In this document: in pieces, positions 17,037 through 34,246 of the stretch
How positions within the stretch are numbered: position 1 is the stretch's first letter
How the letters are laid out: every line of letters starts with the position of its first letter
The notes under the pieces: generated by a model
Databases searched by the model: none
Told to the model about the DNA's origin: nothing
Seen by the model: the letters and a program-made list of their open reading frames with translations, nothing else
Position numbers and translations under genes: made by a program
Assembly (NCBI GenBank): GCA_026389845.1
Contig: JAPLHB010000076.1
Coordinates: 1-34,246, forward strand
Source: Chloroflexota bacterium
GTDB taxonomy: Bacteria; Chloroflexota; Anaerolineae; CG2-30-64-16
DNA: 34,246 nt
Direction: 5' to 3'

Positions 17037-17087
17037 GAAACTCATCGCACTCTGTCATAATCTCATCTTTCCAACGGAGGCATCACC

Positions 17088-18500: not shown

Positions 18501-18509
18501 GGGCTCGCG

Positions 18510-18652: not shown

Positions 18653-18669
18653 CCTGGAGGCGCAACGAA

Positions 18670-19869: not shown

Positions 19870-19874
19870 CGCCA

Positions 19875-19907
19875 AGAGACCAGGTTTCTGTGAACAACTT
19901 GGTTTCT
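19875..19907 (+). repeat. Imperfect 33-nt palindrome
   Basis: The stretch begins AGAGACCAGGTTTCT and ends ACTTGGTTTCTC, with decayed arms. The length matches the 33-bp elements found in the methyltransferase gene and at 23550. It could be a degraded member of that class; support is weak. Confidence 0.35.
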
Positions 19908-19954
19908 CCTCAGCCACTATCTAATATCCTATATCTAACCAATGGAGGTTTTTC

Positions 19955-20854
19955 ATGGCTAAGAAGAAGATTTCCGTAGGCACCTGGGCGTACATCTGGG
20001 GCGGCTATGCGGACAAGCCGATCGACTTGCCCGTAGTAGCCAAGAAGCTGCAAGATTATAAGTTTGACGGCGTCGAACTGGGCATTTTCGCCCCGCACCT
20101 CTCGCTCGACGACGCCAGGGATCTGAACAAGGTCCGCGCGGTCAAGAAAATCCTGGACGACCACGGCCTTGGCGTGTCGGGCATCGCTGCCGACTTCGGC
20201 AAGGTGCCGCCACCTTACGCTAGCCTGCCGGACTACATCGACGTTGTCTTGAGGCATGTGGAGATATGCCAGGTTCTCGGTACGAACAAGATTCGCACCG
20301 ACTTGATCATCGACGTCGACAAGATCCCACTCGGCGAATATGAGATCGCTTTCTGGCGCAGCGCGCACTTGTTCCGCATCGCCTCGGACGTAGCCGGCAA
20401 GCACGGCGTCAAGTTCATCTGGGAATTTGAGCCGGAGTTCTTCGTCAACAAGCCCAGCCAGATCGTTCGCATGTGTCACGCAGTCGGCCACCCGAACTTC
20501 GGCGTGCTCTTCGACTCCTGCCATGCGCACATGGTGGGCGTAGTCGGCGCGCGACAGCGGGGTGAGAAGGAGACGCTGCCCGGCGGTGTCGTGCAGTTCG
20601 CACATATGCTGACGGGTTGGATCAAGCACGTACACTTCATCGACAGCGATCAGACGCTGCACGATGACCGAACTTCGACCCACGCCCCATTCGGCCAGGG
20701 CGTCCTCGACTTTCCGTCGATCATCCAGGCGTTGAACGATGCCGGGTACAAGGATGAGTGGTGGCCGATGGACCTGTGCTACTGGCCGGGAGCTCTGGAA
20801 GCCACCGGCCCGGCCAAGAAGTTCATGGATGAGTTGGTCGCGAAGTACGGGTGA
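19955..20854 (+). CDS. Sugar phosphate isomerase/epimerase-type TIM barrel 1
   Basis: 299 residues from ATG 19955 (GGAGG at 19944-19948, 6 bp upstream). An AP-endonuclease-2-like TIM barrel: KISVGTWAYIWGG as strand 1, FIWEFEPEFF with a metal-site Glu, GVLFDSCHAHM with Asp and His, KHVHFIDSD with His. The usual last Glu on strand 8 appears as Asp (WWPMDLCYW), an atypical ligand. These barrels catalyse metal-dependent isomerisation, epimerisation or elimination on sugars and inositols; the specific reaction is unknown. It is transcribed with the surrounding dehydrogenases. The gene is followed immediately by a long heptamer array starting at its stop codon. Confidence 0.82.
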   Translation: MAKKKISVGTWAYIWGGYADKPIDLPVVAKKLQDYKFDGVELGIFAPHLSLDDARDLNKVRAVKKILDDHGLGVSGIAADFGKVPPPYASLPDYIDVVLRHVEICQVLGTNKIRTDLIIDVDKIPLGEYEIAFWRSAHLFRIASDVAGKHGVKFIWEFEPEFFVNKPSQIVRMCHAVGHPNFGVLFDSCHAHMVGVVGARQRGEKETLPGGVVQFAHMLTGWIKHVHFIDSDQTLHDDRTSTHAPFGQGVLDFPSIIQALNDAGYKDEWWPMDLCYWPGALEATGPAKKFMDELVAKYG

Positions 20855-21177
20855 TGCGTGGTGCGCGGTACGTGGTACGTGGTGCGTGGTGCGTGGTGCG
20901 TGGTACGTGGTACGTGGTGCGTGGTACGTGGTGCGTGGTGCGTGGTGCGTGGTACGTGGTGCGTGGTGCGTGGTCCGTGGTACGTGGTACGTGGTACGTG
21001 GTACGTGATGCGTGGTGCGTGGTACGTGGTACGTGGTACGTGGTACGTGAGTGCCGCATTGGCAGGTGAGCTTGTCACCGAGAGAAAACGGAACACGCAA
21101 CACGCAACACGCAACACGCAACACGCAACACGCAACACGCAACACGCAACACGCAACACGCAACACGCAACACGCAA
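20855..21177 (+). repeat. Large inverted pair of heptamer arrays
   Basis: This fills most of a 358-bp gap without a gene. Array 1 (20855-21050) has 28 units of 7 bp in unbroken phase, mostly TGCGTGG or TACGTGG, beginning directly after a stop codon. Array 2 (21094-21177) has 12 perfect CACGCAA units. The reverse complement of array 2 in register (TGCGTGT) differs from TGCGTGG at one base in seven, so the transcript could fold into a long imperfect stem around the 43-nt spacer. Between 21178 and 21212 are a decayed unit and the ribosome binding site AAGGAG. Confidence 0.9.
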
Positions 21178-21212
21178 CACGAACCACGTGATCTCCAAGG
21201 AGTAAGAACACA

Positions 21213-22277
21213 ATGTCAAACACGATGAAAGCCCAAGTCTTCTCCGCTGCCGAGAAGATGGAGATGGCGGAGCTACCGATTCCGCAGGTGGGTGACGCCG
21301 ACGTGCTGGTGCGCGTCAAGAACTGCGGCATCTGCGGCTCGGATATTTCCTACTACTTCGGCCTCAGCCCGACGGGCAAGATGCCCATCGTGCTGGGCCA
21401 TGAGTTCACCGGCGAGGTGGTCGAGGTCGGCGCGATCCCCAAGTCCATGGGGCTGTTCAAGCCGGGCGACCGGGTAGTCGTCAACCCGGTGCAGCACTGC
21501 AACGCCTGCTACGCCTGCGCCAGTGGTCACACCAACCTGTGCGCCAACCTCTACGTGCCGGGTGTGAACGCCGACGGCGCCATGGCCGAATACGCGCTCT
21601 CCCGCTACACCGGTCTCTTCAAGCTGGACGACACGGTCAGCTACGCGGCGGGCGCGTTTATCGAGCCGCTGGCCTGCGCGGTCTATGGCATGAAAAAACT
21701 GGCGATCGAGCCGGGCCAGTTCGTGGCCATCTTCGGCCCCGGCCCCATCGGCATCATGATGGTGCAGATCGCCAAGGCCGTCGGCGCGGGCAAGGTGGCG
21801 ATGGTCGGTACCCGCGACTACCGCCTGGAAGAAGCCAAAAAGTGGGGCGCGGACTACATCTTCAACACCAAGGATGCAAAGTCTCCCTATTTCGTCAAGG
21901 ACTTGAAGGCCGCGATCGCGGATGTATCGCATGGCCTCCTGGCCGAGCGCGCCATCGTCCCGACCAGCTCCAACGACGCGTTCGAGCAGGCGATTGATAT
22001 CACCGGGGGCGCGGCGATCATCGTGCACTTCGGCCTGCCGGACGCTGGCGACGTGATTCACGTGCCCGCGTTGGTCACGCACACCGCCGACAAGGAGATC
22101 CGCTTCTCCTGGCTGGCGCCGGGCGTCTGGCCGACCACCATCGCCATGATCGCCAACGGGTTGCTCAACCTGGAACCGCTGGTCAGCCGGGCCGTGCCGC
22201 TCTCCGAGGCCGCAACCGCTATCGTCAACCTGCGGGCACGCAAGGATGACCCGATCAAGGTGCAGATCACGCCATGA
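21213..22277 (+). CDS. Zinc-dependent MDR-family sugar/polyol dehydrogenase
   Basis: 354 residues; AAGGAG at 21198-21203 precedes ATG 21213. A medium-chain dehydrogenase with the catalytic zinc site C38 (NCGICGSD) and H63-E64 (VLGHEFTG), the structural zinc cysteines C96, C99, C102 and C110, and the NAD(P)-binding motif GPGPIG near residue 172. It matches the threonine/sorbitol dehydrogenase branch, which oxidises secondary alcohols. An insertion with several charged residues around 225-265 (SPYFVKDLKAAIADVSHGLLAERA) is longer than usual. In this cluster it probably oxidises a sugar or polyol intermediate. Confidence 0.9.
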   Translation: MSNTMKAQVFSAAEKMEMAELPIPQVGDADVLVRVKNCGICGSDISYYFGLSPTGKMPIVLGHEFTGEVVEVGAIPKSMGLFKPGDRVVVNPVQHCNACYACASGHTNLCANLYVPGVNADGAMAEYALSRYTGLFKLDDTVSYAAGAFIEPLACAVYGMKKLAIEPGQFVAIFGPGPIGIMMVQIAKAVGAGKVAMVGTRDYRLEEAKKWGADYIFNTKDAKSPYFVKDLKAAIADVSHGLLAERAIVPTSSNDAFEQAIDITGGAAIIVHFGLPDAGDVIHVPALVTHTADKEIRFSWLAPGVWPTTIAMIANGLLNLEPLVSRAVPLSEAATAIVNLRARKDDPIKVQITP

Positions 22278-22283
22278 TTGCTG

Positions 22284-22352
22284 GGGACTAGGAGCTAGGG
22301 ACTAGGAATTGGAAATACCTCAGACCTAGTCCCCAGTTCCTAGTCCCCCAAT
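22284..22352 (+). repeat. Inverted heptamer arrays (GGGACTA / CCTAGTC)
   Basis: Left half 22284-22311: GGGACTA, GGAGCTA, GGGACTA, GGAATTG. Right half 22325-22352: CCTAGTC, CCCAGTT, CCTAGTC, CCCCAAT. The halves are near reverse complements around a 13-nt loop, and the structure begins 6 bp after a stop codon and ends 18 bp before the next ribosome binding site. Confidence 0.85.
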
Positions 22353-22383
22353 CCTCTACGCTCAATCCACAAGGAGCTGACAC

Positions 22384-23232
22384 GTGATTCAATACGGCAT
22401 CAACACCTTCCTCTGGTCCTCGCCCTTCCAGACCAAGGATTTGCACTTCCTGGACAAGGCCAAGGCGATGGGATTCGACCTGCTGGAAATCCCCATCGAA
22501 AGCGAGGGCGATGTTGACTACGGCGCGGCGGCGGAAGCGTATGCGCGCACCGGACTGGCGTGCAGCACGTGCGCGGTGATGGGCGCGGGCCGCGATCCAT
22601 CCCACCCGGACGAGAAGATCCAGCAAGCGGGCATCGCATACCTCAAGCACTGCATTGATGGGACCGCCCGCATGGGCGGCAAGCTGGTCGTCGGCCCGCT
22701 CTACGCGGCCGTGGGACGCCAGTGGCAGCAGACGCCGGCGCAGCGGGTGGCCGATCTGGCGCTGGCCGCGAAAAACCTGCGCGTCGCGGCCGAATACGCC
22801 GAGCAGAAGGGCATCCGCCTGGCGCTGGAGCCGCTCAACCGGTTCGAGACCAGCTTCATCAACCTGACGGAGCAAGCCCTGGAGCTGATGCACCTGATCA
22901 ACAGCCCCGCGGCCGGCCTGATGATGGACACCTTCCACGCCAACATCGAGGAGAAGCACTTGGGCCAGGCCCTCGAAATGGCCGGCGCGAAGCTGTGGCA
23001 CGTTCACGCCAATGAGAATGACCGCGGCACCCCCGGCACCGGCCACGTGGCGTGGACCGAGATCGCAGCCGCGCTGAAGAAGATCGGCTTCAGCGGCGCG
23101 CTGGTCATCGAGTCCTTCAGCACCGAGGTGAAGGAGATCGCGCGCGCCGCGGCCGTCTGGCGCCCCCTGGCCCCCACCGCCGACGGCCTGGCCGTGGACG
23201 GCATGGCGTTCCTCAAGAAGCTGATGGCGTAG
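22384..23232 (+). CDS. Ketose 3-epimerase-like TIM barrel 2
   Basis: 282 residues, GTG start at 22384 with AAGGAG (22371-22376) 7 bp upstream. Strong resemblance to D-tagatose/D-psicose 3-epimerases: QYGINTFLWSSPF at the N-terminus, LALEPLNRFETSFIN (first catalytic Glu), MMDTFHANIEEKHL (Asp), HVHANENDRGTPGTGHV (His and the conserved loop) and ALVIESFS (second catalytic Glu). Family members move a proton at C3 of free ketoses using Mn or Mg. That chemistry fits a pathway with C3 oxidation or C3 epimers. The next gene begins 2 bp after its stop, suggesting coupling. Confidence 0.88.
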   Translation: MIQYGINTFLWSSPFQTKDLHFLDKAKAMGFDLLEIPIESEGDVDYGAAAEAYARTGLACSTCAVMGAGRDPSHPDEKIQQAGIAYLKHCIDGTARMGGKLVVGPLYAAVGRQWQQTPAQRVADLALAAKNLRVAAEYAEQKGIRLALEPLNRFETSFINLTEQALELMHLINSPAAGLMMDTFHANIEEKHLGQALEMAGAKLWHVHANENDRGTPGTGHVAWTEIAAALKKIGFSGALVIESFSTEVKEIARAAAVWRPLAPTADGLAVDGMAFLKKLMA

Positions 23233-23234
23233 AG

Positions 23235-23540
23235 ATGATCGCACACAACGTCTACTTCACCCTGATTGACAACTCCGAGGCCGCCGTGCAGATGCTGCTC
23301 GCTGCCTGCCAGAAGTACCTCGTGGATCATCCAGGCATCGCGTCGTTTGCCTGCGGCCCCCTGGCCATTGACCACGCCCGCGATGTAAACGACCGCGACT
23401 GGGACGTTGGGCTGCACATTGTCTTCACCGATAAGGCCGCGCACGATCGGTACCAGGACGCGCCCCTGCATCAGCAGTTCATAGCTGAATCCAAGCTAAA
23501 CTGGAAACGGGTGCGAGTGTTCGACACGGTACTGGCCTGA
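23235..23540 (+). CDS. Dabb (stress-responsive A/B barrel) domain protein
   Basis: 101 residues beginning at ATG 23235, 2 bp after the preceding stop. The start MIAHNVYFTLID, the middle FACGPLAIDHARDVNDRDWDVGLHIVFTDKAAHDRYQDAPLHQQFI and the end VRVFDTVLA are the pattern of dimeric alpha/beta-barrel Dabb proteins. Such proteins accompany many sugar-catabolic Gfo/Idh/TIM-barrel clusters, usually without a proven role. It is probably cytoplasmic. Confidence 0.87.
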   Translation: MIAHNVYFTLIDNSEAAVQMLLAACQKYLVDHPGIASFACGPLAIDHARDVNDRDWDVGLHIVFTDKAAHDRYQDAPLHQQFIAESKLNWKRVRVFDTVLA

Positions 23541-23549
23541 AGATTCTAA

Positions 23550-23582
23550 ACGTGCCAGGCACCTCGCAGGTGCCTGGCACGT
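23550..23582 (+). repeat. Intergenic palindrome, GTGCCAGGCAC type, copy 2
   Basis: Perfect 15-bp arms (ACGTGCCAGGCACCT at 23550-23564, complement at 23568-23582) around CGC, total 33 bp. It starts 10 bp after a stop and shares its core with the copy at 5096-5131. Confidence 0.85.
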
Positions 23583-23600
23583 GGGCAAGGAGCTACCTCC

Positions 23601-24713
23601 ATGACACGCAAAATCAACGTCGCGATCGTCGGCATGGGGTTCGGCGCGGAGTTCATCCCGATCTACCAGCGCCACCCGCACACGGTCATGTACGCCATCT
23701 GCCAGCGGAACAAGGCGCACCTGGACGAGGTGGGCGACAAATTCGGCGTTGCGAAACGCTACACCGATTTCGCTGAGCTGCTCGCCGATCCGAACGTGGA
23801 TGCGGTACATATCAACTCGCCCATTGATGACCACGCCTGGATGAGCATTGATGCCCTCAAGGCGGGTAAGCACGTGGCATCCACCGTCCCCATGGCGCGC
23901 ACGATCGAGGAGTGCCGGCAGGTGGTGGAGGCGCAGCGGGCTTCCGGCAAGAAGTACACCATGATGGAGACCACGGTCTTCACCCGCGAGTACCTCTTTG
24001 TCAAAGAGTTGTACGAAAAGGGTGCGCTGGGCCGCATCCAGTTCGTGCGCGCGGCGCACCACCAGGAGATGGCAGCCGGCACCTGGCCGAAGTACTGGCC
24101 CGGCATGCCGCCGATGCACTACGCCACCCACTGCGTCGGCCCGTGCCTGGGCCTGACCGGGAAGCGGGCCGAGTGGGTCTCATGCCTCGGCTCCGGCCGC
24201 GTGGACGACAAATACGCCCGGCGTTATGGCTCGCCCTTCGCCATCGAGTCCACGCACATCAAGCTAAAGGACTCGGACGTCCACGCCGAGATCACACGCT
24301 CGCTCTATAACACGGCGCGCGAATACATCGAGAGCTTCGATGTCTACGGCAGCCTGCGGAGCTTCGAATGGCAACAACTCGCCGCCGACGAACCGGTGAT
24401 CTTCACCGGCGAGGACGGCAAGCGCGTGCCGGTGCCCGACTACGCCAGGCTGTTGCCCGAGCCGATCCAGCGCTTCACCACCAAGGGCGTGTACGACCTG
24501 GAGAGTGAGACCCACATGTCGTTCATCCAGGGCGCCGGTCACGGTGGCTCGCATCCGCACCTGGTCAACGAGTTCATCACGAGCATCGTAGAGGATCGCG
24601 ACCCGTTCCCGAACGCGGCGCAATCGGCCAATTGGACCTGCGTCGGCATCTGCGCGCACGATTCGGCCCTGCGCGGCGGCGAGATCGTCCGGCTGCCGGA
24701 GTTTACGTTATAG
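23601..24713 (+). CDS. Gfo/Idh/MocA-family oxidoreductase 1 (non-canonical EKP motif)
   Basis: 370 residues; AAGGAG (23587-23592) is 8 bp before ATG 23601. Rossmann start [18 protein letters not shown], then [43 protein letters not shown]. In most family members the stretch after GKHV reads CEKP, whose Lys helps catalysis; here it reads STVP, so that Lys is absent. The C-terminal domain has [14 protein letters not shown] where the usual substrate-facing His lies. It is NAD(P)-dependent by family. The substitution defines a distinct subgroup whose chemistry may differ from simple dehydrogenation. It is followed by another TIM-barrel/oxidoreductase pair. Confidence 0.88.
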
Positions 24714-24753
24714 ACGGATAGACCAGGAAACAGGGAAACAAGGAGACAAGGGT

Positions 24754-24788
24754 CGCAACACGCACCACGCAATACGCAGTACGCAATA
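24754..24788 (+). repeat. Heptamer array before a ribosome binding site
   Basis: Five units in phase: CGCAACA, CGCACCA, CGCAATA, CGCAGTA, CGCAATA. The array ends 2 bp before AGGAGG (24791-24796) of the next gene, the same arrangement as at 18618-18652. No matching inverted array is seen upstream in this gap. Confidence 0.8.
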
Positions 24789-24801
24789 TCAGGAGGCACA
24801 C

Positions 24802-25803
24802 ATGTCTCGACCAGTCACTCTCTTCACCGGCCAATGGGCCGATCTGACCTTCGATACGGTCTGCGCCAAGGCCAAGTCATTCGGCTACGATGGCGTCGAG
24901 ATCGCCTGCTGGGGCGATCATTTCGAGGTGGACAAGGCGCTGGAAAGCGACAAGTACATCCAGGGCCGCTGGGACATCCTGAACAAGCACGGCCTCAAGT
25001 GCTTCGCGATCAGCGCGCACCTGGTGGGTCAGGCCGTGTGCGACCGCATTGACGAGCGCCACGCAAGCATCTTGCCCCCGCGCATCTTCGGCGACGGCAA
25101 AGAGGACGGCGTGCGCGCCCGCGCGGCCGAGGAAATGAAGAACACCGCCCGTGCCGCGGCCAAAATGGGCCTCAAGGTCGTGCCCGGCTTCACCGGCTCG
25201 CCCATCTGGCACATGGTCTATTCCTTCCCGCCCAATCCGGCCGACTACCTGGCGAAAGGCCTCAAGCTCTTCGCCGATATGTGGCTGCCGATCCTGAATG
25301 TCTTCGAGCAGGTCGGCGTCAAGTTCGCGCTGGAGGTCCACCCCACGGAGATCGCCTTCGACATCGCCAGTGCGGAGAACGCGCTGAACGCGGTGGGAGG
25401 CCACAAGGCGTTCGGCTTCAACTATGATCCCAGCCACTTCGGCTATCAGGGCGTGGACTATGTGGCGTTCATCCGCAAGTTCGCCAGCCGCATCTTCCAC
25501 GTCCACATGAAGGACGTGTGGTGGTCATCGAAGCCGATGGAGGCCGGTGTCTTCGGCGGGCATCTCAACTTCGGCGATGCACGGCGCTTCTGGGACTTCC
25601 GTTCGCTGGGCCGCGGCTCGATCAACTTCGAGGATATCATCCGCGCGCTGAACGACATCGGCTACGCCGGCCCGCTGTCGGTCGAATGGGAAGACGGCAA
25701 GATGGATCGCGAGCATGGGGCAACCGAGTCGGCCGCGTTTGTCAAGCGGCTGGACTTCGCGCCATCGGCCGTCGCGTTCGACGCAGCGTTCGAGAGGAAG
25801 TGA
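24802..25803 (+). CDS. Sugar phosphate isomerase/epimerase-type TIM barrel 3
   Basis: 333 residues; AGGAGG 24791-24796 precedes ATG 24802. A canonical AP-endonuclease-2-like barrel with all four metal ligands in view: [12 protein letters not shown] (Glu), [11 protein letters not shown] (Asp, His), [10 protein letters not shown] (His) and [11 protein letters not shown] (Glu). The ligand set and the '[29 protein letters not shown]' ending are typical of enzymes paired with Gfo/Idh/MocA dehydrogenases in inositol and keto-sugar pathways. Its stop overlaps the next start in TGATG, so it is probably made in a fixed ratio with that dehydrogenase. Confidence 0.88.
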
Positions 25804-26999
25804 TGACCATGGGCGAACAATCCTTCACCGCGATGGCCGACCCGAAGGCCGCGGGAACGGCGCCGGAAGTCGGCATCGGCATGTTGGGCTACGCCTTCAT
25901 GGGCAAGGCGCACACCAACGCCTACAAGAAGATTCCTTACATGATGTACCCGCCGCCCGCAATCCCGCGGCTGGTCGCCATCTGCGGCCGCAACGTCGAG
26001 GCGGCCCAAGAGGCGGCGCGGCGCTATGGCTACGAAAAGGTCTACGGCGACTGGCGCGAGATGCTTGCGGACCCGGCCGTGCAGCTCTTCGACAACGGCG
26101 GCCCCAACAACGCGCACGCGGAGCCGTGCATCGCGGCCGCGCGGGCCGGCAAGCACGTCTTCTGCGAGAAGCCATTGGCCCGCAACGCCGAAGAGGCGAA
26201 GACGATGCTCGACGCAGTCACCAAAGCCGGCGTCAAGCATCAGGTCGCGTTCAACTACCGTTTCGTGCCCGCGATCCGCCAGGCCTACGAGCTGATCCAG
26301 AGCGGCAAGCTCGGCCGCATCTACCACTTCCGCGCGATCTACCTGCAAGAGTGGATCATGCCGCACTACAACACGCCGATGATCTGGCGGCTGGACAAGA
26401 AGGCGGCGGGCAGCGGCGCGCTGGGCGATCTCGGCGCACACATCATTGACCTGGGCCGTTTCCTGGTCGGCGAGATGAAGAGCGTCTCGGCCATGACCAA
26501 GACCTTCATCACCGAGCGGCCGCAGGGCGACGGCACGATGGGCAAGGTGGAAGTGGACGACGCGTTCGTCTCGTGCGTGGAGTTCGCCAACGGCGCCATC
26601 GGCACGCTGGAAGCCACCCGTTTCGCTGCCGGTCGCAAGAACTACGAGGTGCTGGAGATCAACGGCGAAAAGGGCAGCATCCGCTTCGATCTGCATCGGA
26701 TGAACGAGCTGGAGGTCTTCTGGATTGACGACGAACCCAAGGAGACCCAGGGCTTCCACCAGGTGCTCATCAGCGAAGGGTATCACCCGTTCTGGTCGAA
26801 CTGGTGGCCGCACGGGCACATCATCGGCTGGGAGCACAGCTTCGTCCACGAACTGACCCACTTTCTCGACTGCATCGTCAACGACAAGCCGGTCGCGCCC
26901 TTGGCCGCCTCCTTCGAGGATGGCTATCGCACGGCGTGCGTGTGTGACGCGATCCTGGCGTCGGCGGCGGGGAAACGACAGGTGGATATTAGATATTAG
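25803..26999 (+). CDS. Gfo/Idh/MocA-family oxidoreductase 2
   Basis: 398 residues from ATG 25803 (TGATG overlap); ATG 25809 is possible. Rossmann domain begins at VGIGMLGYAFMGKAHTNAY, the canonical GKHVFCEKPLA motif is intact, and GALGDLGAHIIDLGRFL carries the catalytic Asp/His pair. The C-terminal domain is a full-length substrate-binding beta sheet. It is a sugar or polyol dehydrogenase using NAD(P). Coupling with the TIM barrel upstream suggests that one makes the substrate of the other, for example oxidation to a keto sugar followed by isomerisation or elimination. Confidence 0.9.
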   Translation: MTMGEQSFTAMADPKAAGTAPEVGIGMLGYAFMGKAHTNAYKKIPYMMYPPPAIPRLVAICGRNVEAAQEAARRYGYEKVYGDWREMLADPAVQLFDNGGPNNAHAEPCIAAARAGKHVFCEKPLARNAEEAKTMLDAVTKAGVKHQVAFNYRFVPAIRQAYELIQSGKLGRIYHFRAIYLQEWIMPHYNTPMIWRLDKKAAGSGALGDLGAHIIDLGRFLVGEMKSVSAMTKTFITERPQGDGTMGKVEVDDAFVSCVEFANGAIGTLEATRFAAGRKNYEVLEINGEKGSIRFDLHRMNELEVFWIDDEPKETQGFHQVLISEGYHPFWSNWWPHGHIIGWEHSFVHELTHFLDCIVNDKPVAPLAASFEDGYRTACVCDAILASAAGKRQVDIRY

Positions 27000-27258
27000 G
27001 CAATACCGCAAAACTCGCTATTGTCACCCTGAGCGGGTCGGCCCCGTGAAGTGCGTTGCGGCGAGAATCCAGCGAAGAGCCTGCCCTGAGCGCAGTCGAA
27101 GGGGTCTCGTTGCGGCAAGGAGAACTTGTTCCTTCACTGTGTTCAGGACAGGCTCTGAGCGCAGCGAACTGATGCGCAAAACGAAAAATGAAAAGGAGCA
27201 TCCCCTTGCGATCTTCCGTTTTTCGTTTTGCGTTTTCAGCTTTGCGGAAGGAATCCCC
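27000..27258 (+). repeat. Repeat-rich intergenic region with inverted heptamers
   Basis: Contains several CCCTGAGCG-type dispersed motifs (around 27027, 27085 and 27160) and, at 27175-27188, CGCAAAACGAAAAA, which is matched exactly by its reverse complement at 27219-27232. That 14-bp inverted repeat is two heptamers (CGCAAAA, CGAAAAA) on each side of a 30-nt loop. No gene is seen. The next ribosome binding site, GGAAGGA, is at 27245-27251. Confidence 0.75.
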
Positions 27259-28293
27259 ATGAACAAATACGGTTACCGCTTCTCATTCGGCCCCTGGAAC
27301 ATCCACGAAGGGGCCGATCCTTTTGGTCCGGCGGTGCGGCCGGCGCTGAGCTTCGAGACCAAGCTGCCGATCTACAAAGAGTTGGGCTTCGACGCGGTGC
27401 AGTTCCACGACGACGACGCGGTGCCGGACCTGGACGGTCTCGCCGCGGCGCAGATCGCGGCCCGTGCGCGAGCAGTCCGGCAGATGCTCGATGATCACGG
27501 CCTGATCGCGGAGTTCGTCGCGCCACGGCTGTGGGAACACCCCAAGACGATTGACGGCGGCTACACCTCGAACAACGCGTCCGAGCGCGCGTATGCGATC
27601 GAGCGCTCCAAAAAGGCGGCGGACATCGCCCGCGAGCTGGGGTGCGATCTGATGGTGCTCTGGCTGGCGCGCGAGGGGTCGTACATGCGCGAGGCGAAGG
27701 ACGCCGGGCGGGCCGCGCGGCAACTGCTCGATGCGATCAACACGCTACTGAATTATGACAAGTCCATCCGCATCGCGATCGAGCCGAAGCCGAACGAGCC
27801 GATGGATCTGGCGTACATCCCGACCATGGGTCACGCCCTGGCCCTGGGATTCCAGGCGGCCGATCCGAAACGTGTAGGAGTGCTGATGGAGTCGGCGCAC
27901 TCGATCCTGGCCGGCCTCGATCCTTCCGACGAGATCGGCTTCGCGATGGCGTTCGGCAAGCTGTGGAGCGTCCACCTGAACGATCAGAACGGTCTCAAGT
28001 TCGACCAAGACCGTTCCTTCGGCGCGGTGGACTTACGGCGAGCGTTCAACCAGGTGCGTGTGCTGGACGCCAACCGCTTCTGGGAGATCGGCATCGTCGG
28101 CCTGGACGTGAAGGCCATCCGCACCCAGCCGGCCGAGTTGGCGACAAAACACCTTCGTAACTCCCTGCAGATGTTCACCCGGCTGGTGGAGCTAGTGCGC
28201 TCGCTGGACGAGGGGCGAATCGCCGGACTGATCGCGACCAGGGACTATGAGGAGTTGGACTGGCTGATCTTGAGCCATCTGATGGGGCGGTAG
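27259..28293 (+). CDS. Xylose isomerase-related TIM barrel 4
   Basis: 344 residues from ATG 27259. Motifs of actinobacterial-type xylose isomerase are plain: RFSFGPWNIHEGADPFGPAVRPALS, AVQFHDDDAVPD, IEPKPNEP (metal Glu at 175), an E-x-x-H pair in LMESAHSILAGL, and NDQNGLKFDQDRSFGAVD with the Asp ligands. It is some 40 residues or more shorter than classical XylA and divergent in the barrel centre, for example HLNDQ in place of HIDLN. It may isomerise a hexose, a deoxysugar or an uncommon pentose rather than xylose. The frame extends upstream through repeats, but there is a good start and ribosome site here. It ends the catabolic run. Confidence 0.87.
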   Translation: MNKYGYRFSFGPWNIHEGADPFGPAVRPALSFETKLPIYKELGFDAVQFHDDDAVPDLDGLAAAQIAARARAVRQMLDDHGLIAEFVAPRLWEHPKTIDGGYTSNNASERAYAIERSKKAADIARELGCDLMVLWLAREGSYMREAKDAGRAARQLLDAINTLLNYDKSIRIAIEPKPNEPMDLAYIPTMGHALALGFQAADPKRVGVLMESAHSILAGLDPSDEIGFAMAFGKLWSVHLNDQNGLKFDQDRSFGAVDLRRAFNQVRVLDANRFWEIGIVGLDVKAIRTQPAELATKHLRNSLQMFTRLVELVRSLDEGRIAGLIATRDYEELDWLILSHLMGR

Positions 28294-28299: not shown

Positions 28300-29337
28300 T
28301 CATTGTGACGGGCGTGCCAGGGGCGGTGTCCAACCCCGCGTAGTCCACTCGTGGGGGATGCCCCTGGCATCGAGGGCCGCCTCGTAGTCCTTCAGCGTGG
28401 CGGACGTGATGATATCCACGCCAGTAGTGACGATGCCGTTCATAGCCCCCATCTCGTTCAAGGCCGGCTCTACTCCCTTCTCGGCCATCAGCTTGATGAT
28501 CTGCACCGACTTGTAGCCCATGTCATACTCGCGCTGGGCTACCGTGGCGTCAATTACCCCCTCCTTGATGCCATTGATGGTGTCGGTGGTGGTGTCGAAG
28601 CAGACGACCTTAATTTTGCCGACGGCTTTCGCCTCCTTGATGGCCGTGGCCCAGGCCGGCCCATTGTAAGCGTAAACCCCAAAAGCGCCGGCCAGATCGG
28701 GATTGGCTGAAATCACCGAGTTGGAGAGCTGCAGCGCCGCAGCCGCATCTTCTTGATCGTTCATAGGCGTCAGGGGCTTGATGCCCGTGCCCGTGACCGC
28801 GGCCAGGAAACCCTCGGTGCGCTGCAAGGCATTGAGCGCCGTGTCGGAGCCGCGCACGATGCCCACCTTGCCGCCGTTGGGCAGGAGTGTGGTCAGCGTT
28901 TGCCCCGCGATCTGACCGGCGCCGTAGTTATCGGTGCCGATGTAGACCTTGGCGGCGCTGCCTTCCACCGGGGGCGTATCCAGCGTGGTCACGAAAATCC
29001 CTGCGCCGGCTGCCTTTTTCATCACCCGTTCCAGGGCCTGCGGGTTCGAAGGCGCGATGGCGATGCCGGTGACTCCCTGGGCGATGTAGGTCTCCATGGT
29101 CTGGATTTGGGCCGCCACGTCCTCCTTGGGGGGCACGAAGAATACCGTTTTGATGCCCAGATCCTTGCCGGCGGCCTCGACGCCTTTCTCGACATTGGAC
29201 CAATACGGATTCACCGATTTGCCGATGACGACGATGATCGTCTCTGGCGGCGCGCCGGCTTCGCGCACCGGAACGCAGGCCGTCATTACCAGCGAGAGAA
29301 AAAACAGGAATCCCAAGTGCGCCAACCGAAGTTTCAT
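28300..29337 (-). CDS. LacI-type sugar-binding lipoprotein of an ABC system
   Basis: 345 residues on the minus strand; GGGAGG lies 7 nt before the ATG. Signal peptide ends in the lipobox MTAC with C21. The rest is a type I periplasmic binding protein of the ribose/galactose class: [72 protein letters not shown] and [33 protein letters not shown]. It captures a sugar outside the cell. It is transcribed divergently from the REC-HTH-REC regulator and shares an intergenic operator with it. No permease or ATPase follows it on its own strand (the next gene is convergent), so it most likely serves the permease/ATPase-kinase encoded on the other side. Confidence 0.93.
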
Positions 29338-29501: not shown

Positions 29502-29517
29502 TAGGGGGAATCCCCTA
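29502..29517 (+). promoter_or_regulatory. Operator-like near-palindrome between divergent genes
   Basis: TAGGGGGAATCCCCTA. Its exact reverse complement is at 33299-33314. It lies between the promoters of the divergent binding protein and the response regulator, at nearly equal distance from each. Confidence 0.7.
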
Positions 29518-29560: not shown

Positions 29561-29589
29561 TTGGCAACGGGCGGCAATGATGCTATAAT
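29561..29589 (+). promoter_or_regulatory. Near-consensus promoter of the response regulator, leaderless
   Basis: TTGGCA (29561-29566), 17 bp, TATAAT (29584-29589). A start 7 nt after the -10 falls at 29596, which is the A of the ATG, and no ribosome binding site precedes that ATG. Confidence 0.75.
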
Positions 29590-29595
29590 GCCCGT

Positions 29596-30642
29596 ATGGG
29601 CAAAGTACGCGTTCTACTGGCAGACGACCATGCCGTGGTGCGATCAGGCATCCGCCACGCCTTGCAAGACCTACCGGACCTGGAGATCGTGAGCGAAGTG
29701 GGCGACGGGCCGTCGCTCGTGACGGCCCTGGAAGAGTCGCGGCCCGATCTGCTGGTGATTGACGTGACGATGCCGGACTTCGAGCCGGTGACTACCATCC
29801 GCCAGATTCGGGCGCGTTATCCGGCGATGAAGGTCCTGGTCGTCAGCGCGTATGACGATGACGCTTACGTCCAGGGCTTGCTCGGCGTCGGCGTGAATGG
29901 CTATCACCTGAAGGATCAACCCCTCAGCGACCTGAAGCTGGCTGTGCAGCGGGTGCTGGCCGGCGAACGGTGGATCTCCAGCACCCTAATCAGCAAACTG
30001 CTCAGCTACGCCGAATTCTGTGCGCCGTCATCGGGCCTGACCGACCGCCAGCGCGAGATCTTGCGCCTCTTGCTCCTGGGTTATGACAACCAAAGCCTGG
30101 CCCGCGAGACCGGCCTGAGCGTCAAGACCATCGAAAACCACCTGACTCGCATCTACCGCCAGCTCAACGTGCAAAGCCGGCTGGAGGCAGTCCACTACGT
30201 GACCGAGCATCCCGAAGTGCTCAACTCGCCCGGCCCCGCGACTGCCGCCATCCTGCCCGAGCTACTCCCCCAGAACCGATTCACCACGCTGCTGGTGGAC
30301 GACAATGCCCGGTATCGCAGCCAATTGCGGCGGATGGTCAGTCGGGTGTACCCGCAGGCCACCATCTACGAAGCCGAGAACACGAACGAAGCCGTGCGCC
30401 TGGTCGAGCAGATGTTGCCTCAATTAGTGCTCGTGGACGTGATCCTGGGCGACGAGGACGGCATCCGGTGCGTCCGGCGCATCAAAACCTTGCAGCCGCA
30501 ATCCCGCGTCATTCTGATCAGCGCGTATCCCGACCGCGAGTTCCGCCGGCTCGGCATGGAAGCAGGGGCGGCGGCCTTCGTGGACAAGAAAGACCTGGAT
30601 GCGGCGACCATGCGCCAGATGATTGATGACGTCTTAGCCTGA
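29596..30642 (+). CDS. Response regulator with REC-LuxR/NarL HTH-REC architecture
   Basis: 348 residues. The N-terminal receiver (D10, D11, phospho-acceptor D56 in LLVIDVTMPD) is followed by a NarL/LuxR helix-turn-helix at about 145-205 (LTDRQREILRLLLLGYDNQSLARETGLSVKTIENHLTRIYRQLNV). An ordinary regulator would end there; instead a second complete receiver spans about 230-348, with LLVDDNARYRSQLRRMV, phospho-acceptor D281 (LVLVDVILGDEDG), VILISAYP and K in FVDKKDLD. The D56 receiver has HLKDQP at its switch Lys. It likely takes phosphate from the HisKA_3-type kinase fused to the ATPase two genes downstream. Two receivers could integrate two kinases or act as phosphate source and sink. It probably binds the 16-bp operators at 29502 and 33299. 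Confidence 0.92.
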   Translation: MGKVRVLLADDHAVVRSGIRHALQDLPDLEIVSEVGDGPSLVTALEESRPDLLVIDVTMPDFEPVTTIRQIRARYPAMKVLVVSAYDDDAYVQGLLGVGVNGYHLKDQPLSDLKLAVQRVLAGERWISSTLISKLLSYAEFCAPSSGLTDRQREILRLLLLGYDNQSLARETGLSVKTIENHLTRIYRQLNVQSRLEAVHYVTEHPEVLNSPGPATAAILPELLPQNRFTTLLVDDNARYRSQLRRMVSRVYPQATIYEAENTNEAVRLVEQMLPQLVLVDVILGDEDGIRCVRRIKTLQPQSRVILISAYPDREFRRLGMEAGAAAFVDKKDLDAATMRQMIDDVLA

Positions 30643-30655: not shown

Positions 30656-31681
30656 GTGGCGGATGATAAGACGGGCGGGGCGCTACACGCCCCCAAGACC
30701 TATACCCTCCCTGCATCGCCCAGGCGGATCTGGAACAACCTGATCAACGGCCAGGTTTTTGTCGTCCTGATCATGTTTCTCGCCCTCCTCGCTTTTCTAA
30801 GCCTGAAGACGCATACCTTTCTCAGCTACAACAATCTAGCCAGCCTCTCCAGGAACTTCTCGTGGCTTGCCATCGTATCATTTGGCCAGAGCATGGTCAT
30901 CATCATCGGCGGCATTGACCTGTCGGTGGGCGCGACGATGGCCCTGGCCGGACTGGTGGCCGCGCGCTGCATGCAGGTCGGCGTTCCTGTGCCCCTCGCC
31001 ATCGCCGTCGGCCTGCTGGTCGGGGTGATCGTGGGATGGCTCAACGGCACGATGGTGGCGCGCGTCCGGCTGCCGCCGTTCATCGTTACGTTGGGGACCA
31101 TGAGCATCGCCCGCGGTTTTGCCTACAGTCTGACCAAAGGCTGGTCGGTGACGAATCTGCCCGAAGCATTCCTGCAGTTGGGCCAATCCGACGTCGCCAT
31201 CGGCCCCTGGTCGGTGCCGCTGCCCTTCCTGATCGCCCTGGGCGTGGCCCTGTTGGTCAGGCTGTTGTTGAACCACACGGTGATCGGGAGCGACATCTAC
31301 GCCATGAGCAGCGGCGAACGGGCGTTGCTCGTCTCGGGCGTCAATGTCATCGGCCTGAAGGTGGTGGTTTATACCCTTTGCGGGCTGTTGGCGGCCATCG
31401 GCGGCATGATGATTGCCGCGCGCCTGGGGGTGGCGGCGCCGGCCGCGGCCATCGGCTATGAGGTGGACGTGGTCGCAGCCGCCGTGATCGGGGGAACCAG
31501 CTTGTTCGGCGGCATCGGCAGCACGCTGGGGGTCTTGCTGGGCGCGGCCGTCACGCAGATGCTCTACAATGGGCTGGTGCTGCTCGGCTATCCCTCCTAT
31601 TGGCAAACGGCAGCCATCGGCACGATGATCCTGCTGGTCATTCTGCTGGATTACTGGCGACGACAGCGGCGGGGGGAGTAG
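30656..31681 (+). CDS. Sugar ABC transporter permease, RbsC/XylH type
   Basis: 341 residues from GTG 30656, 13 bp after the regulator stop. A hydrophilic N-terminus of about 30 residues leads into eight to ten hydrophobic helices. Family signatures: VIIIGGIDLSVGATMALAGLVAARCM, LNGTMVARVRLPPFIVTLGTMSIARGFAYSLTKG and AAVIGGTSLFGGIGSTLGVLLGA. These mark permeases of ribose/xylose/galactose-type importers, which normally work as homodimers with a double-NBD ATPase like RbsA. Here the following gene encodes only a single NBD fused to a kinase, so the pair may transport poorly or serve as a sensor. Confidence 0.93.
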   Translation: MADDKTGGALHAPKTYTLPASPRRIWNNLINGQVFVVLIMFLALLAFLSLKTHTFLSYNNLASLSRNFSWLAIVSFGQSMVIIIGGIDLSVGATMALAGLVAARCMQVGVPVPLAIAVGLLVGVIVGWLNGTMVARVRLPPFIVTLGTMSIARGFAYSLTKGWSVTNLPEAFLQLGQSDVAIGPWSVPLPFLIALGVALLVRLLLNHTVIGSDIYAMSSGERALLVSGVNVIGLKVVVYTLCGLLAAIGGMMIAARLGVAAPAAAIGYEVDVVAAAVIGGTSLFGGIGSTLGVLLGAAVTQMLYNGLVLLGYPSYWQTAAIGTMILLVILLDYWRRQRRGE

Positions 31682-31684
31682 CGC

Positions 31685-33301
31685 ATGGAGCCGTTGCTGC
31701 GAGCCATCAACCTCTCCCAGAGCCTGGGCACCCTCTCGCTGATCCGCCAGGTGAGCCTGGAGATCCAGAGCGGTGAAGTGGTGGGTCTGGCCGGGCAAAG
31801 CGGCGCGGGCAAGTCGGCCCTGGCGATGGTGCTGGCGGGCGTCTATGTGCCCAATTCAGGGGACCTCTATTTTGCCGGCCAACGGCTGAGCTGGCCGTTT
31901 CGAGCCAGGACGCTGGGCATCGAGGTGATTCATCAACAGCCCGAGATGGCCGAAGAACTGGACATCAGTCGCAACGTCTTTTTGGGCAGCGAGATCGGCT
32001 GGCCGCGGGGCAACCGCTGGCTGAGAATCCCCAACCGCCGGCGGATGGATGAGGAAGCGGGGCGCATCCTCGCTCGGCTGGGGATGCATTACACGTCGCT
32101 GCGCGAGAGCGTGACCAATCTCTCGGGCGAACAGCGCCAGTTGATCGCCATTGCCCGGGCGATGACCCACCCGGCCCGGCTCATCATCATAGACGATCCG
32201 AGCCTGCTCTTGAGCTATCCCTACCAGCAGAAACTCCTGGCGTTCATCCAGGAGTGGCAGGGTGGAGGCGCCGCGGTGCTCTTCGGCAGCGACAACGTGG
32301 ATCACCTGATGGCCGTGACCGATCGCATCGTCGTATTGCGTCATGGTCGCGTCATCGCCGAACACCGCACCGACACCACCGACCGCGAAACGATCCTGGC
32401 TGCGATGGTGGGCGCCGCCGACCAGCAACAGCTCACGCCGTTCATCTGGGCGTTGGACAGCTACTACCGCGCCCGAGAACAAGCGGAGCAGCTGCACCAC
32501 CGGCAATCGCTCCTGGAGCGCAAGCTGGAGACCCACGACGGGCTGAACTATCAGATCATTGACCAACTGGCCGATCAGATCAACGCCCTCGACCAGGCCA
32601 ATGTCGCCTTGCAGGATGCGCAACGGCGGCTCTTGACCGAGCTGGAACAGGAACGCAAACGGCTGGCCCGCGAAATCCACGACCAGGTGATCCAAGACCT
32701 GCTGGGCGTGGGCTATCGGCTGGAGGAAATCGAAGCTGGCGCCGAAGTGACCCCAGCGCTGGAAGCGGAGCTGCAGGATGTCCGGGGCAGCGTGCGTGAC
32801 CTGGTAGGCGACCTCCGCCACATCTGCGGCACCCTCCGGCCGCCGACCATTGACAGCCTGGGACTGGGTTCCGCGCTGCAATCCTATACGCACGAGTGGA
32901 GCAAGCGCACGGGCATCCGCGTGAGTCTCACCCTGGACCCCAACCTGGGGCGGCTGCCGGAGGCCACCGAACTGTCCATTTTCCGCATCGTGCAGGAAGG
33001 ATTGAACAACGTGCGCAAGCACGCGGCGGCCGGCGCGGTCGAGATCCGCCTGGAGCACACCTCGCCGCGGCGGCTGATGCTCGCCATCGCCGACGACGGC
33101 CGCGGATTGGCCGCGGACTTCGATCTGGCGAGCCTGTCAGCCGAGGGACACTATGGCGTGTTGGGCATCACTGAACGCGTGGCGCTGTTGGGCGGACAGT
33201 GGCGGTTCCAGAACCGCCCCGAAGGCGGCGCGCTCATCCAGGTCGAGATTCCGCATCCCCGTGTCGAACAGGCCGACGGGGATGGAAAGGCGCACCTTTA
33301 G
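31685..33301 (+). CDS. ABC transporter ATPase-histidine kinase fusion protein
   Basis: 538 residues in one uninterrupted frame, 3 bp after the permease. Residues 1-235 are a RbsA-like nucleotide-binding domain: Walker A GQSGAGKS (K43), signature LSGEQ (146-150), Walker B LIIIDDP (D170, D171). The usual catalytic Glu is Asp (D171), the D-loop is unrecognisable, and the switch His is D203 (GSDN). Residues about 255-330 form a coiled coil. Then comes a NarL-type kinase: HisKA_3 with phospho-acceptor H332 (LAREIHDQVIQDLLGVGYRL), CGTLRPPTIDSLGLGSAL, HATPase N box FRIVQEGLNNVRKHA (about 432), ADDGRGL and GVLGITERVALLGG. The total length is close to RbsA, as if the second NBD were replaced by a kinase. 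Likely partners are the upstream permease and the REC-HTH-REC regulator. The stop codon overlaps an operator. Confidence 0.92.
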   Translation: MEPLLRAINLSQSLGTLSLIRQVSLEIQSGEVVGLAGQSGAGKSALAMVLAGVYVPNSGDLYFAGQRLSWPFRARTLGIEVIHQQPEMAEELDISRNVFLGSEIGWPRGNRWLRIPNRRRMDEEAGRILARLGMHYTSLRESVTNLSGEQRQLIAIARAMTHPARLIIIDDPSLLLSYPYQQKLLAFIQEWQGGGAAVLFGSDNVDHLMAVTDRIVVLRHGRVIAEHRTDTTDRETILAAMVGAADQQQLTPFIWALDSYYRAREQAEQLHHRQSLLERKLETHDGLNYQIIDQLADQINALDQANVALQDAQRRLLTELEQERKRLAREIHDQVIQDLLGVGYRLEEIEAGAEVTPALEAELQDVRGSVRDLVGDLRHICGTLRPPTIDSLGLGSALQSYTHEWSKRTGIRVSLTLDPNLGRLPEATELSIFRIVQEGLNNVRKHAAAGAVEIRLEHTSPRRLMLAIADDGRGLAADFDLASLSAEGHYGVLGITERVALLGGQWRFQNRPEGGALIQVEIPHPRVEQADGDGKAHL

Positions 33302-33314
33302 GGGATTCCCCCTA
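33299..33314 (+). promoter_or_regulatory. Operator-like near-palindrome upstream of the last binding-protein gene
   Basis: TAGGGGATTCCCCCTA, the exact reverse complement of 29502-29517; its first three bases and the next form part of the fusion gene's stop. Two GGGAAATC repeats follow at 33325-33332 and 33346-33353, 21 bp apart. Its centre is 80.5 bp from the end of the downstream -10. Confidence 0.7.
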
Positions 33315-33358: not shown

Positions 33359-33387
33359 TACACAGAAGGCGTAGATTGTGGTATACT
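33359..33387 (+). promoter_or_regulatory. Predicted promoter of the XylF/ChvE-like binding protein
   Basis: TACACA (33359-33364), 17 bp, then TATACT (33382-33387) with TGG extension at 33379-33381. Transcription would start near 33394, giving a leader of about 180 nt. Confidence 0.6.
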
Positions 33388-33572: not shown

Positions 33573-34246
33573 ATGAGATCCAAGCTAATGCGTTTCGTCA
33601 TGCTTGCCGTTGCCTTGATGATGATTTCGACTGCCTTGTTTGGCTGCGCGACGCCCGCCCAGCCCACGGCCGCACCCGCCAAGCCGACAGCCGCCCCGGC
33701 TGCTGCCCAGCCCACGGCCGCACCCGCCGCCGCGCAACCCACGGCTGCACCCGCCGCCACCGGCAAGGTGAAGGTCGGTCTCTCCTTCTCGGACTTTGCG
33801 ACCGAGCGCTGGAAGCCAGAACAAGTGCTGATGACAAAGCTCTTGAATGACAAGGGCTACGATGTGATTTGGCAGGAAGCGAACCATGATGTCAAGCTGC
33901 AGAACGACCAGATTGACAACATGGTGACGCAGGGCGTCAAGGCCCTCATCGTCATCGCGGAAGACGGCGATGCGGCGGTGACGGCGGTGGACAAGGCGGC
34001 CAAAGCAGGTGTGAAGGTCATCGCGTATGACCGCCTGATCAAGTCCCCCAACATTGGGGCGTACATCTCCTTCAACAACACCGAAGTCGGTCGCCAGGAG
34101 GCGGCGGGCGTGGTCAAGGCGTTGAACATGGACGGCGGCAAGTGGACGACGGCCAACCCCGTCAAGCTCATGAAGATGGGCGGCAGTCCCACCGACAACA
34201 ACGCCATCCTGGTCCGCCAGGGACAGGACGAGGTTCTCAAGCCGTA
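33573..34246 (+). CDS. XylF/ChvE-like sugar-binding lipoprotein (3' end outside window)
   Basis: 224 residues visible; the frame runs off the window. ATG 33573 has GGAGG at 33561-33565. Lipobox ALFGC with C25, then a repetitive Pro/Thr/Ala linker to about residue 62. The mature part (KVGLSFSDFATERWKPEQVLMTKLLNDKGYDVIWQEANHDVKLQNDQIDNMVTQGVKALIVIAEDGDA and GVKVIAYDRLI) matches the xylose/multiple-monosaccharide binding protein class (XylF, ChvE). It is controlled by its own predicted promoter and operator. An ordinary double-NBD ATPase and another permease are expected just beyond the window; that is a prediction, not seen. Confidence 0.93.
   Translation, partial: MRSKLMRFVMLAVALMMISTALFGCATPAQPTAAPAKPTAAPAAAQPTAAPAAAQPTAAPAATGKVKVGLSFSDFATERWKPEQVLMTKLLNDKGYDVIWQEANHDVKLQNDQIDNMVTQGVKALIVIAEDGDAAVTAVDKAAKAGVKVIAYDRLIKSPNIGAYISFNNTEVGRQEAAGVVKALNMDGGKWTTANPVKLMKMGGSPTDNNAILVRQGQDEVLKP

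What the first reader, a model, noticed from the sequence alone, without database searches (positions are those of the whole stretch)
30656..33301. Transport ATPase fused to a histidine kinase: a possible transporter-as-sensor system
One protein joins a RbsA-like ABC nucleotide-binding domain to a NarL-type histidine kinase through a coiled coil, in the place where RbsA has its second ATPase domain. It is directly behind a RbsC-type permease and in the same run as a response regulator, with two sugar-binding lipoproteins flanking. Established parallels have separate proteins: ChvE-sugar acting on VirA, and BceAB acting on BceS. Here sensing and signalling would be one polypeptide: binding protein and sugar change the permease, the NBD and coiled coil move, and H332 is phosphorylated. 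I know of no described system with this fusion.
Basis: partly seen in the sequence, partly recalled or inferred. Interest (0 to 1): 0.93.

Follow-up and report, generated by a model that had tools for sequence, protein, structure and literature searches.

The report
Sugar importer rebuilt as kinase receptor
In Chloroflexota bacteria, a large protein family joins a sugar-importer ATPase that has lost key catalytic residues to a signalling kinase whose motifs are intact, and together with a modified importer permease it would likely act as a sugar receptor that switches on sugar-uptake genes, a design for which our limited paper searches found no description.

Summary
The fusion is real: ORF 31685-33301 is ABC NBD, 85-residue linker, HisKA_3/HATPase_c. 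It is no assembly artefact: 27 of 400 phylum genomes carry it, and the 240 homologues listed all have NBD plus HisKA_3. Three additions. (1) The NBD is a conserved pseudo-ATPase: P-loop, Q-loop and the segment after it are mostly kept, but the second Gly of LSGGQ is Glu in 231 of 240 and the H-loop His is absent in 240 of 240. (2) In 18 of 86 loci, the window included, a distinct permease precedes it with no other ATPase within 600 bp; its predicted coupling helix is changed (Leu224 in 120 of 120 relatives, Ala in 73 of 75 transporter permeases), and in two loci it is fused to a binding protein. (3) The REC-HTH-REC regulator is in all 27 fusion genomes and 28 of 400 overall, and a palindrome TAGGGG-N4-CCCCTA sits before regulator and binding-protein genes. 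Best reading: an importer turned receptor, its ATPase subunit turned kinase. Sugar, direction, and contact with the permease are untested.

The parts
31685..33301 (+). Pseudo-ATPase/histidine kinase fusion, 538 aa (NBD about 1-245, linker 247-331, HisKA_3 + HATPase_c 323-525)
32129..32131 (+). Codon of E149: second Gly of the ABC signature replaced by Glu (LSGEQ)
   Evidence: Glu in 84 of 85 and 231 of 240
32195..32197 (+). Codon of D171: position of the catalytic Glu, Asp here
   Evidence: E 38, D 35, N 6 of 85; D 195, E 30, N 14, G 1 of 240
32291..32293 (+). Codon of D203: position of the H-loop His, Asp here
   Evidence: His in 0 of 85 and 0 of 240; His in 14 of 14 single NBDs
32423..32677 (+). 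Linker, residues 247-331, predicted helical, nearly constant length
   Evidence: 85 aa in 86 of 86, 235 of 240; helices 247-281 and 288-351 in the model, low pLDDT for 250-310
32678..32680 (+). Codon of H332, predicted phospho-acceptor
   Evidence: 86 of 86, 240 of 240
30656..31681 (+). Receptor-type permease (RbsC-like, BPD_transp_2), predicted partner of the fusion
31307..31342 (+). Altered segment, permease residues 218-229 (SSGERALLVSGV), predicted coupling helix
   Evidence: short helix 221-226 in the model
29596..30642 (+). Response regulator REC-LuxR HTH-REC, predicted cognate partner
   Evidence: both receiver Asp (D56, D281) 57 of 57
29502..29517 (.). Predicted regulator operator 1, TAGGGGGAATCCCCTA, between binding protein 1 (-) and regulator (+)
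29561..29589 (+). Predicted promoter of the regulator operon, TTGGCA-17-TATAAT with TG, 11 of 12
33299..33314 (.). Predicted operator 2, TAGGGGATTCCCCCTA, reverse complement of operator 1, before binding protein 2 (overlaps the stop codon of the fusion)
33359..33387 (+). Predicted promoter of binding protein 2, 9 of 12, about as far from its operator as promoter 1
28300..29337 (-). Sugar-binding lipoprotein 1 (Peripla_BP_4), divergent, palindrome 173 bp upstream
33573..34244 (+). Sugar-binding lipoprotein 2 (XylF/ChvE-like N-terminal part), cut by the contig end

Best explanation
The operon encodes the parts of what is likely a sugar receptor made from an ABC importer: a permease that would take the signal from a sugar-binding protein, and a fusion of an importer ATPase lacking key catalytic residues with a histidine kinase of intact motifs that would dock on the permease and phosphorylate the neighbouring response regulator. 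Proposed working: two fusion chains sit under the permease dimer where an importer would carry its two NBDs. ATP could still bind in most members (Walker A kept), but hydrolysis and transport are predicted to be lost, so the NBD would report permease conformation instead of driving it. The movement would pass through a helical linker of nearly constant length to the H332 dimerisation helices and set kinase or phosphatase state. The regulator, phosphorylated on one or both of its two receiver domains, would bind TAGGGG-N4-CCCCTA, about 64 or 88 bp upstream of predicted start sites, and activate its own operon and the binding-protein/transporter operons. Shown by calls: fusion, motif losses and retentions, linker length, regulator co-occurrence, lack of another ATPase beside this permease type, its altered segment, palindrome enrichment. 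Inferred: docking, binding-protein input, phosphotransfer, operator binding, activation. Unknown: the sugar, and whether it turns the kinase on or off. In relatives without this permease the fusion may dock on the neighbouring importer's permease; that step is the weakest.
For: Pseudo-ATPase under selection: K43 239/240, Q84 239/240, E103 240/240; E149 231/240; H-loop His 0/240; H332 and N442 240/240. In the more diverse locus set of 85: E149 84, His 0, K43 79, Q84 75. G-to-D at the second signature Gly is reported to affect hydrolysis, not ATP binding, in ABC proteins (PMC4459825, passages). The LGxE segment after the Q-loop is kept in fusions (E103 85/85) as in single NBDs (14/14) and RbsA NBD1 (38/39), not in RbsA NBD2 (0/39). 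Permease pairing: in 18 of 86 loci the RbsC-like permease precedes the fusion with no other NBD within 600 bp on its strand, while 50 of 53 importer permeases of the XylH-like type have one; L149 has the same arrangement with that other type; L002 and L003 carry permease-binding protein fusions; 10 of the 18 have a binding-protein gene between permease and fusion. Permease position 224 is Ala in 73/75 transporter permeases, 0/18 here, the most divergent of 322 columns; Leu224 and Glu221 in 120/120 nearest database relatives. Permease divergence tracks the NBD (partial r 0.68), not the kinase (0.02), over 18 loci. In G024 permease and fusion are both remnants while the regulator has an open frame. 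Regulator: all 27 fusion genomes are among its 28 of 400, also where unlinked. Palindrome: with up to 1 mismatch 28 hits in the 49,786 bp upstream of regulator/binding-protein genes, 4 in the other 1.2 Mb; three control patterns 0 upstream, 2, 5 and 7 elsewhere. With up to 2: 51 and 23; controls 7, 3, 3 upstream and 50, 50, 74 elsewhere. The only exact sites in the 6.84-Mb own assembly are the two in this window.
Against: 67 of 86 loci lack a dedicated permease upstream (7 of the 28 without permease or regulator directly upstream have under 1.5 kb of upstream DNA), and in six f36 genomes no permease, regulator or binding-protein gene of this kind was detected around the fusion. On a quick tree the dedicated permease comes or goes 7-8 times, at least 4 on well supported branches. 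Five of 85 locus proteins lack the Walker A Lys (a sixth is truncated), so ATP binding may be lost in some; Q84 is absent in 10 of 85. Glu stands at the catalytic position in 38/85 and 30/240 and the signature Gly in 4/240, so residual activity is not excluded. The 240 are the top 120 of two searches, hence near the window and Chloroflexus. The partial correlations rest on 18 related loci without phylogenetic correction. The model is weak where it matters (pTM 0.51, pLDDT 47-65 for 241-320), and no complex was modelled. In the window no binding-protein gene lies between permease and fusion, so its input protein is unclear. The palindrome was first seen by eye in the window, then tested; 24 of 67 loci with an upstream stretch have none within 2 mismatches. 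The promoter spacing classes were chosen after seeing the data. No wet evidence.
Confidence: 0.67

Rival explanations
1. The fusion is a soluble nucleotide or energy-charge sensor kinase: the pseudo-NBD binds ATP or ADP and sets kinase activity, and permease genes are neighbours only because they are regulated.
For: Walker A Lys kept in 239 of 240 and 79 of 85; no transmembrane-like stretch; 67 of 86 loci have no dedicated permease upstream; in six f36 genomes the fusion stands apart from these genes.
Against: The segment after the Q-loop is near invariant; a permease type with its own ERAL segment and no other ATPase nearby accompanies 18 fusions; permease divergence follows the NBD; permease/binding-protein fusions in L002 and L003 point to outside input.
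Confidence: 0.15
2. The fusion is a regulatory NBD inside a working importer: it pairs with a catalytic NBD on the same permease, so one complex transports and signals (a true transceptor).
For: In 21 of 86 loci the fusion lies directly behind an importer permease. Beside that permease type the ATPase is a single-domain protein in 15 of 42 loci without a dedicated permease (L148 cut by a contig end), against 0 of 6 with one.
Against: The aligned single NBDs keep P-loop Lys, signature second Gly, catalytic Glu and H-loop His (14 of 14 each), so they could form a homodimer by themselves; 27 of 42 such importers have the double RbsA type; in the window and 17 other loci the dedicated permease has no catalytic NBD within 600 bp.
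Confidence: 0.12
3. One reading: an active ABC importer whose ATP hydrolysis cycle drives the fused kinase.
For: Walker A Lys 239 and Walker B Asp 240 of 240; operon order.
Against: Signature Glu in 231 of 240 and H-loop His lost in 240 of 240; altered permease segment.
Confidence: 0.05
4. Neutral decay: the NBD is a leftover domain on an ordinary kinase.
For: Catalytic position variable, Walker A Lys lost in five of 85.
Against: Glu149 in 84 of 85, Walker B Asp in 83 of 85 and E103 in 85 of 85, among proteins down to 42% identity to the window; nearly constant linker length.
Confidence: 0.01

Closest known systems
Ks-Amt5, Amt ammonium transporter fused to a histidine kinase (PMC5764959: abstract, section 7 and discussion read)
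   Same: Importer family member turned receptor that binds but does not efficiently translocate its substrate, coupled to a histidine kinase without HAMP.
   Different: There one membrane protein is fused to the kinase; here the kinase is fused to the soluble ATPase-type subunit and the permease is separate.
UhpABC hexose-phosphate system (PMC4790336 passages; kinship of UhpC to transporters recalled)
   Same: Membrane receptor UhpC activates the kinase UhpB, regulator UhpA controls a transporter gene; the kinase half of the fusion matches the UhpB model.
   Different: UhpC is MFS-like and UhpB itself membrane bound (recalled); here an ABC permease and a pseudo-ATPase adaptor.
BceAB-BceS modules (PMC10314905 abstract)
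   Same: ABC transporter in complex with a histidine kinase; nucleotide binding primes the complex.
   Different: Separate membrane kinase and a peptide-resistance transporter; no fusion.
PstSCAB-PhoU-PhoR (PMC5775613 abstract)
   Same: Importer conformation read out by a kinase; PstB variants without transport still signal.
   Different: Importer with transport function, separate PhoR and PhoU, no fusion.
SLC5/STAC kinases CbrA, CrbS, RpuS (PMC13022988 abstract; PMC9100948 search listing)
   Same: Transporter domain and histidine kinase joined; MctS is the best kinase-family match here.
   Different: Secondary transporter in the same chain, STAC domain between.
RbsABC/XylFGH/ChvE-GguAB importers (CUT2)
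   Same: Related to NBD, permease and binding proteins.
   Different: ATPase catalytic, permease with GGN-x-EAA segment, no kinase.

Membership tests
Catalytic ABC importer ATPase (RbsA/XylG type) | Walker A GxxGxGKS/T | tested here: met
   GQSGAGKS in the window; K43 239 of 240, 79 of 85
Catalytic ABC importer ATPase (RbsA/XylG type) | Signature LSGGQ with second Gly | tested here: not met
   LSGEQ in the window; Glu 84 of 85 and 231 of 240. RbsA NBD1 also departs from LSGGQ but keeps this Gly in 35 of 39
Catalytic ABC importer ATPase (RbsA/XylG type) | Catalytic Glu after Walker B | tested here: not met
   Asp171 in the window; in the family Glu in 30 of 240 and 38 of 85
Catalytic ABC importer ATPase (RbsA/XylG type) | H-loop His | tested here: not met
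   Asp203; His 0 of 240, 0 of 85
HisKA_3 (NarL/UhpB-type) histidine kinase | H-box His plus N and G boxes | tested here: met
   HisKA_3 and HATPase_c above cut-off; H332 240, N442 240, D470 240, G472 240, G474 239 of 240
HisKA_3 (NarL/UhpB-type) histidine kinase | Autophosphorylation and dimer | not testable with these tools
   needs protein
NarL/FixJ response regulator | REC with phospho-Asp plus LuxR-type HTH | tested here: met
   Response_reg and GerE; D56 57/57; extra C-terminal REC with D281 57/57
CUT2 transport permease (RbsC) | BPD_transp_2 domain and type II importer fold | tested here: met
CUT2 transport permease (RbsC) | GGN-x-EAA segment before SGI | tested here: not met
   A224 73/75 in transporter permeases against 0/18 here; N220 73/75 against 2/18
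Transporter-kinase single-chain transceptor (Ks-Amt5, CbrA) | Membrane transporter domain in the kinase chain | tested here: not met
   no transmembrane-like stretch, highest mean hydropathy over 19 residues 1.18
Bce module | BceAB transporter with separate membrane-bound BceS | tested here: not met
   permease is BPD_transp_2, kinase soluble and fused
UhpABC | MFS-type receptor UhpC (recalled) | tested here: not met
   permease is BPD_transp_2

The most novel reading that the evidence does not exclude
Chloroflexota turned the whole ABC sugar importer into a receptor: the ATPase subunit became a non-hydrolysing pseudo-ATPase fused to a histidine kinase, the permease acquired an orthogonal coupling helix reserved for it, and the complex (in its fullest form binding protein fused to permease, plus pseudo-ATPase kinase) signals through one REC-HTH-REC regulator to one operator that controls the real importer. 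To our knowledge it would be the first signalling family in which an ABC ATPase is the input domain of a kinase.
Probability: 0.61. Interest if true: 0.92.

Novelty: new variant of a known kind. Interest (0 to 1): 0.86.

Why it matters
How ABC importers such as PstSCAB report their state to kinases is hard to dissect because transport and signalling share one machine and the contact is indirect. Here the contact would be covalent, the ATPase disabled by evolution, the linker of nearly fixed length, and regulator and operator predicted, in a group that includes culturable Chloroflexus (members named Chloroflexus sp.). That would make the question of how an ABC transporter's conformation becomes a phosphorylation signal directly testable, offer a modular chassis for sugar sensors, and give a function to a large family (1518 database hits at E <= 1e-60, the 120 listed all fused) whose named members are called only 'ATP-binding cassette domain-containing protein' or 'histidine kinase'.

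Tried and rejected
Assembly artefact: rejected by many independent homologues. Fusion as replacement of RbsA's second NBD: not favoured; the fused NBD resembles single-domain CUT2 NBDs most (35% mean identity, against 29% RbsA NBD1 and 24% NBD2). A second such fusion in the own genome: no other match covers both halves among the 132; the 405-residue open frame on C6 is an ordinary single NBD with LSGGQ and His. Plasmid-borne copies: none at 1e-40 in 72,556 plasmid records. Solved structure of a permease relative by sequence: none at E 0.001. NBD columns that separate loci with and without the dedicated permease: largest in 84-145 (R118 17/18 against 9/68), suggestive only, confounded by kinship. 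G309 holds 155 palindromes with up to one mismatch, those listed being GC-centred, so the operator is not informative genome-wide there; in the other 15 genomes searched most one-mismatch sites lie away from this system and may be chance, and in G216 the one match (C5) lies on another contig than the system. Promoter candidates are consensus matches only. The counts of single against double ATPases were inflated by unrelated NBDs; I use the recount.
Full report
Observation. The AlphaFold2 model (mean pLDDT 78.7, pTM 0.51) gives an ordinary ABC fold for the first 245 residues (PDB matches such as CbiO and MalK), then long helices 247-281 and 288-351 and the kinase core; the linker is poorly resolved (pLDDT 47-65).

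It is a family. At E <= 1e-65 the fusion occurs in 27 of 400 genomes sampled over the phylum, 61 of 396 of the class and 2 of 10 of the family (own genome included each time); the 240 listed database homologues all carry ABC_tran and HisKA_3. Named full-length members are Anaerolineae, Anaerolineales, Thermoflexia, Chloroflexus and unclassified Chloroflexota. I mapped gene context in 91 loci, 86 unique.

The NBD is a pseudo-ATPase. In 85 aligned locus proteins Walker A Lys (79), Q-loop Gln (75) and Walker B Asp (83) are mostly kept, but the second signature Gly is Glu in 84 and none keeps the H-loop His; 14 of 14 neighbouring single NBDs keep both, and 39 of 39 RbsA NBD1 keep the His. Five of the 85 lack the Walker A Lys and one is truncated there. 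240 database proteins agree: E149 231, Gly 4; His 0; catalytic-position Glu 30, Asp 195. In other ABC proteins exchange of that Gly for Asp is reported to affect hydrolysis, not binding (PMC4459825 passages). The kinase motifs are intact (H332, N442, D470 240/240). The stretch from NBD end to H332 is 85 residues in 86 of 86 and 235 of 240; mean column conservation is 0.58 in the NBD, 0.70 in the linker and 0.68 in the kinase.

Where the dedicated permease is missing, the fusion often stands with a XylF/ChvE-like importer or the regulator (21 loci directly behind an importer permease, 18 directly behind the regulator, 28 neither, 7 of these with under 1.5 kb of upstream DNA); 63 of 86 loci have some such permease gene in the stretch. 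On a quick tree the dedicated permease changes 7-8 times. Whether the fusion then uses the importer's own permease is open.

The partner regulator. The REC-HTH-REC regulator (E <= 1e-75) is in 28 of the 400 genomes, one match each, and these include all 27 with the fusion. The 28th, G024, has the decayed copy. Coupling holds when the genes are far apart: in six f36 genomes the regulator sits divergent to a binding protein-NBD-permease set while the fusion is elsewhere.

The operator. The window has TAGGGGGAATCCCCTA at 29502 between binding protein 1 and regulator, and its reverse complement at 33299 before binding protein 2. These are the only exact TAGGGG-N4-CCCCTA sites in the 6.84-Mb assembly; four more sites there have one mismatch, one of them in the window at 19157. 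Over 86 loci, sites with up to one mismatch fall 28 times in the 49,786 bp upstream of regulator and binding-protein genes and 4 times elsewhere in 1.25 Mb (two of the four, in L104 and L145, lie 267 bp before a weakly scored binding-protein gene and at the start of a regulator ORF); three control patterns fall 0 times upstream and 2, 5 and 7 times elsewhere. With up to two mismatches it is 51 upstream and 23 elsewhere, controls 7, 3 and 3 upstream and 50, 50 and 74 elsewhere; 43 of 67 loci with such a stretch have a site, 24 do not. Among 43 promoter candidates 10 lie 56-61 bp and 11 lie 79-83 bp from the palindrome centre; by tens, 13 and 10 of 43 fall in 50-59 and 80-89, against 12 and 7 of 104 in shuffles (classes chosen afterwards). 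In the window both promoters are about 80 bp away. This position would suit an activator (inference).

Mechanism and known systems. The parts amount to an importer turned receptor. It would work like Ks-Amt5 (binding kept, translocation lost; PMC5764959, parts read), UhpABC (membrane receptor, UhpB-type kinase, regulator, transporter output; PMC4790336 passages) and PstSCAB-PhoR (PstB variants without transport still signal; PMC5775613 abstract), but it is a member of none: defining features fail (membership table). Eight searches aimed at an ABC ATPase-histidine kinase fusion listed no paper that describes one; I saw listings, those were cut at 20 of 54, 12 of 28 and 12 of 78 papers, and the library lacks most subscription journals.

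What remains open: the sugar (neighbouring genes resemble levoglucosan dehydrogenase and xylose isomerase, below cut-off, and alpha-galactosidase), the binding protein used in the window, direction of signalling, role of the second receiver domain, and physical contact of NBD and permease.

Noticed in passing
L002:5859-7991, L003:2748-4865: Permease fused at its C-terminus to a periplasmic sugar-binding domain (710 and 705 aa), directly before the kinase fusion.
   Followed up: partly
L181:6155-7307 (G024:C472): Remnants of the receptor-type permease and of the kinase behind an importer; regulator with an open frame on another contig.
   Followed up: partly
G309, many contigs: 155 operator-like palindromes with up to one mismatch; those listed are exact, GC-centred copies such as TAGGGGCTGGCCCCTA; looks like a dispersed repeat.
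   Followed up: no
33648-33761: Binding protein 2 has a repetitive Ala/Pro/Thr-rich stretch (QPTAAPAAA repeats) right after its lipobox-like Cys.
   Followed up: no
12428-28293: Sugar genes upstream: alpha-galactosidase-type protein above its NCBIfam cut-off (17088-18500); levoglucosan-dehydrogenase-like (25815-26999), xylose-isomerase-like (27250-28293) and UgpA/UgpC-like ABC genes (12428-13420, 14451-15554) below cut-off.
   Followed up: partly
29584-29598: The predicted -10 box ends only 6 bp before the regulator ATG, so the transcript may be leaderless.
   Followed up: no
L117:2616-2656, L182:7830-7869, L184:9226-9264: Tandem palindromes 23-25 bp apart upstream of regulator or binding protein in Chloroflexus-like and f36 genomes.
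   Followed up: partly
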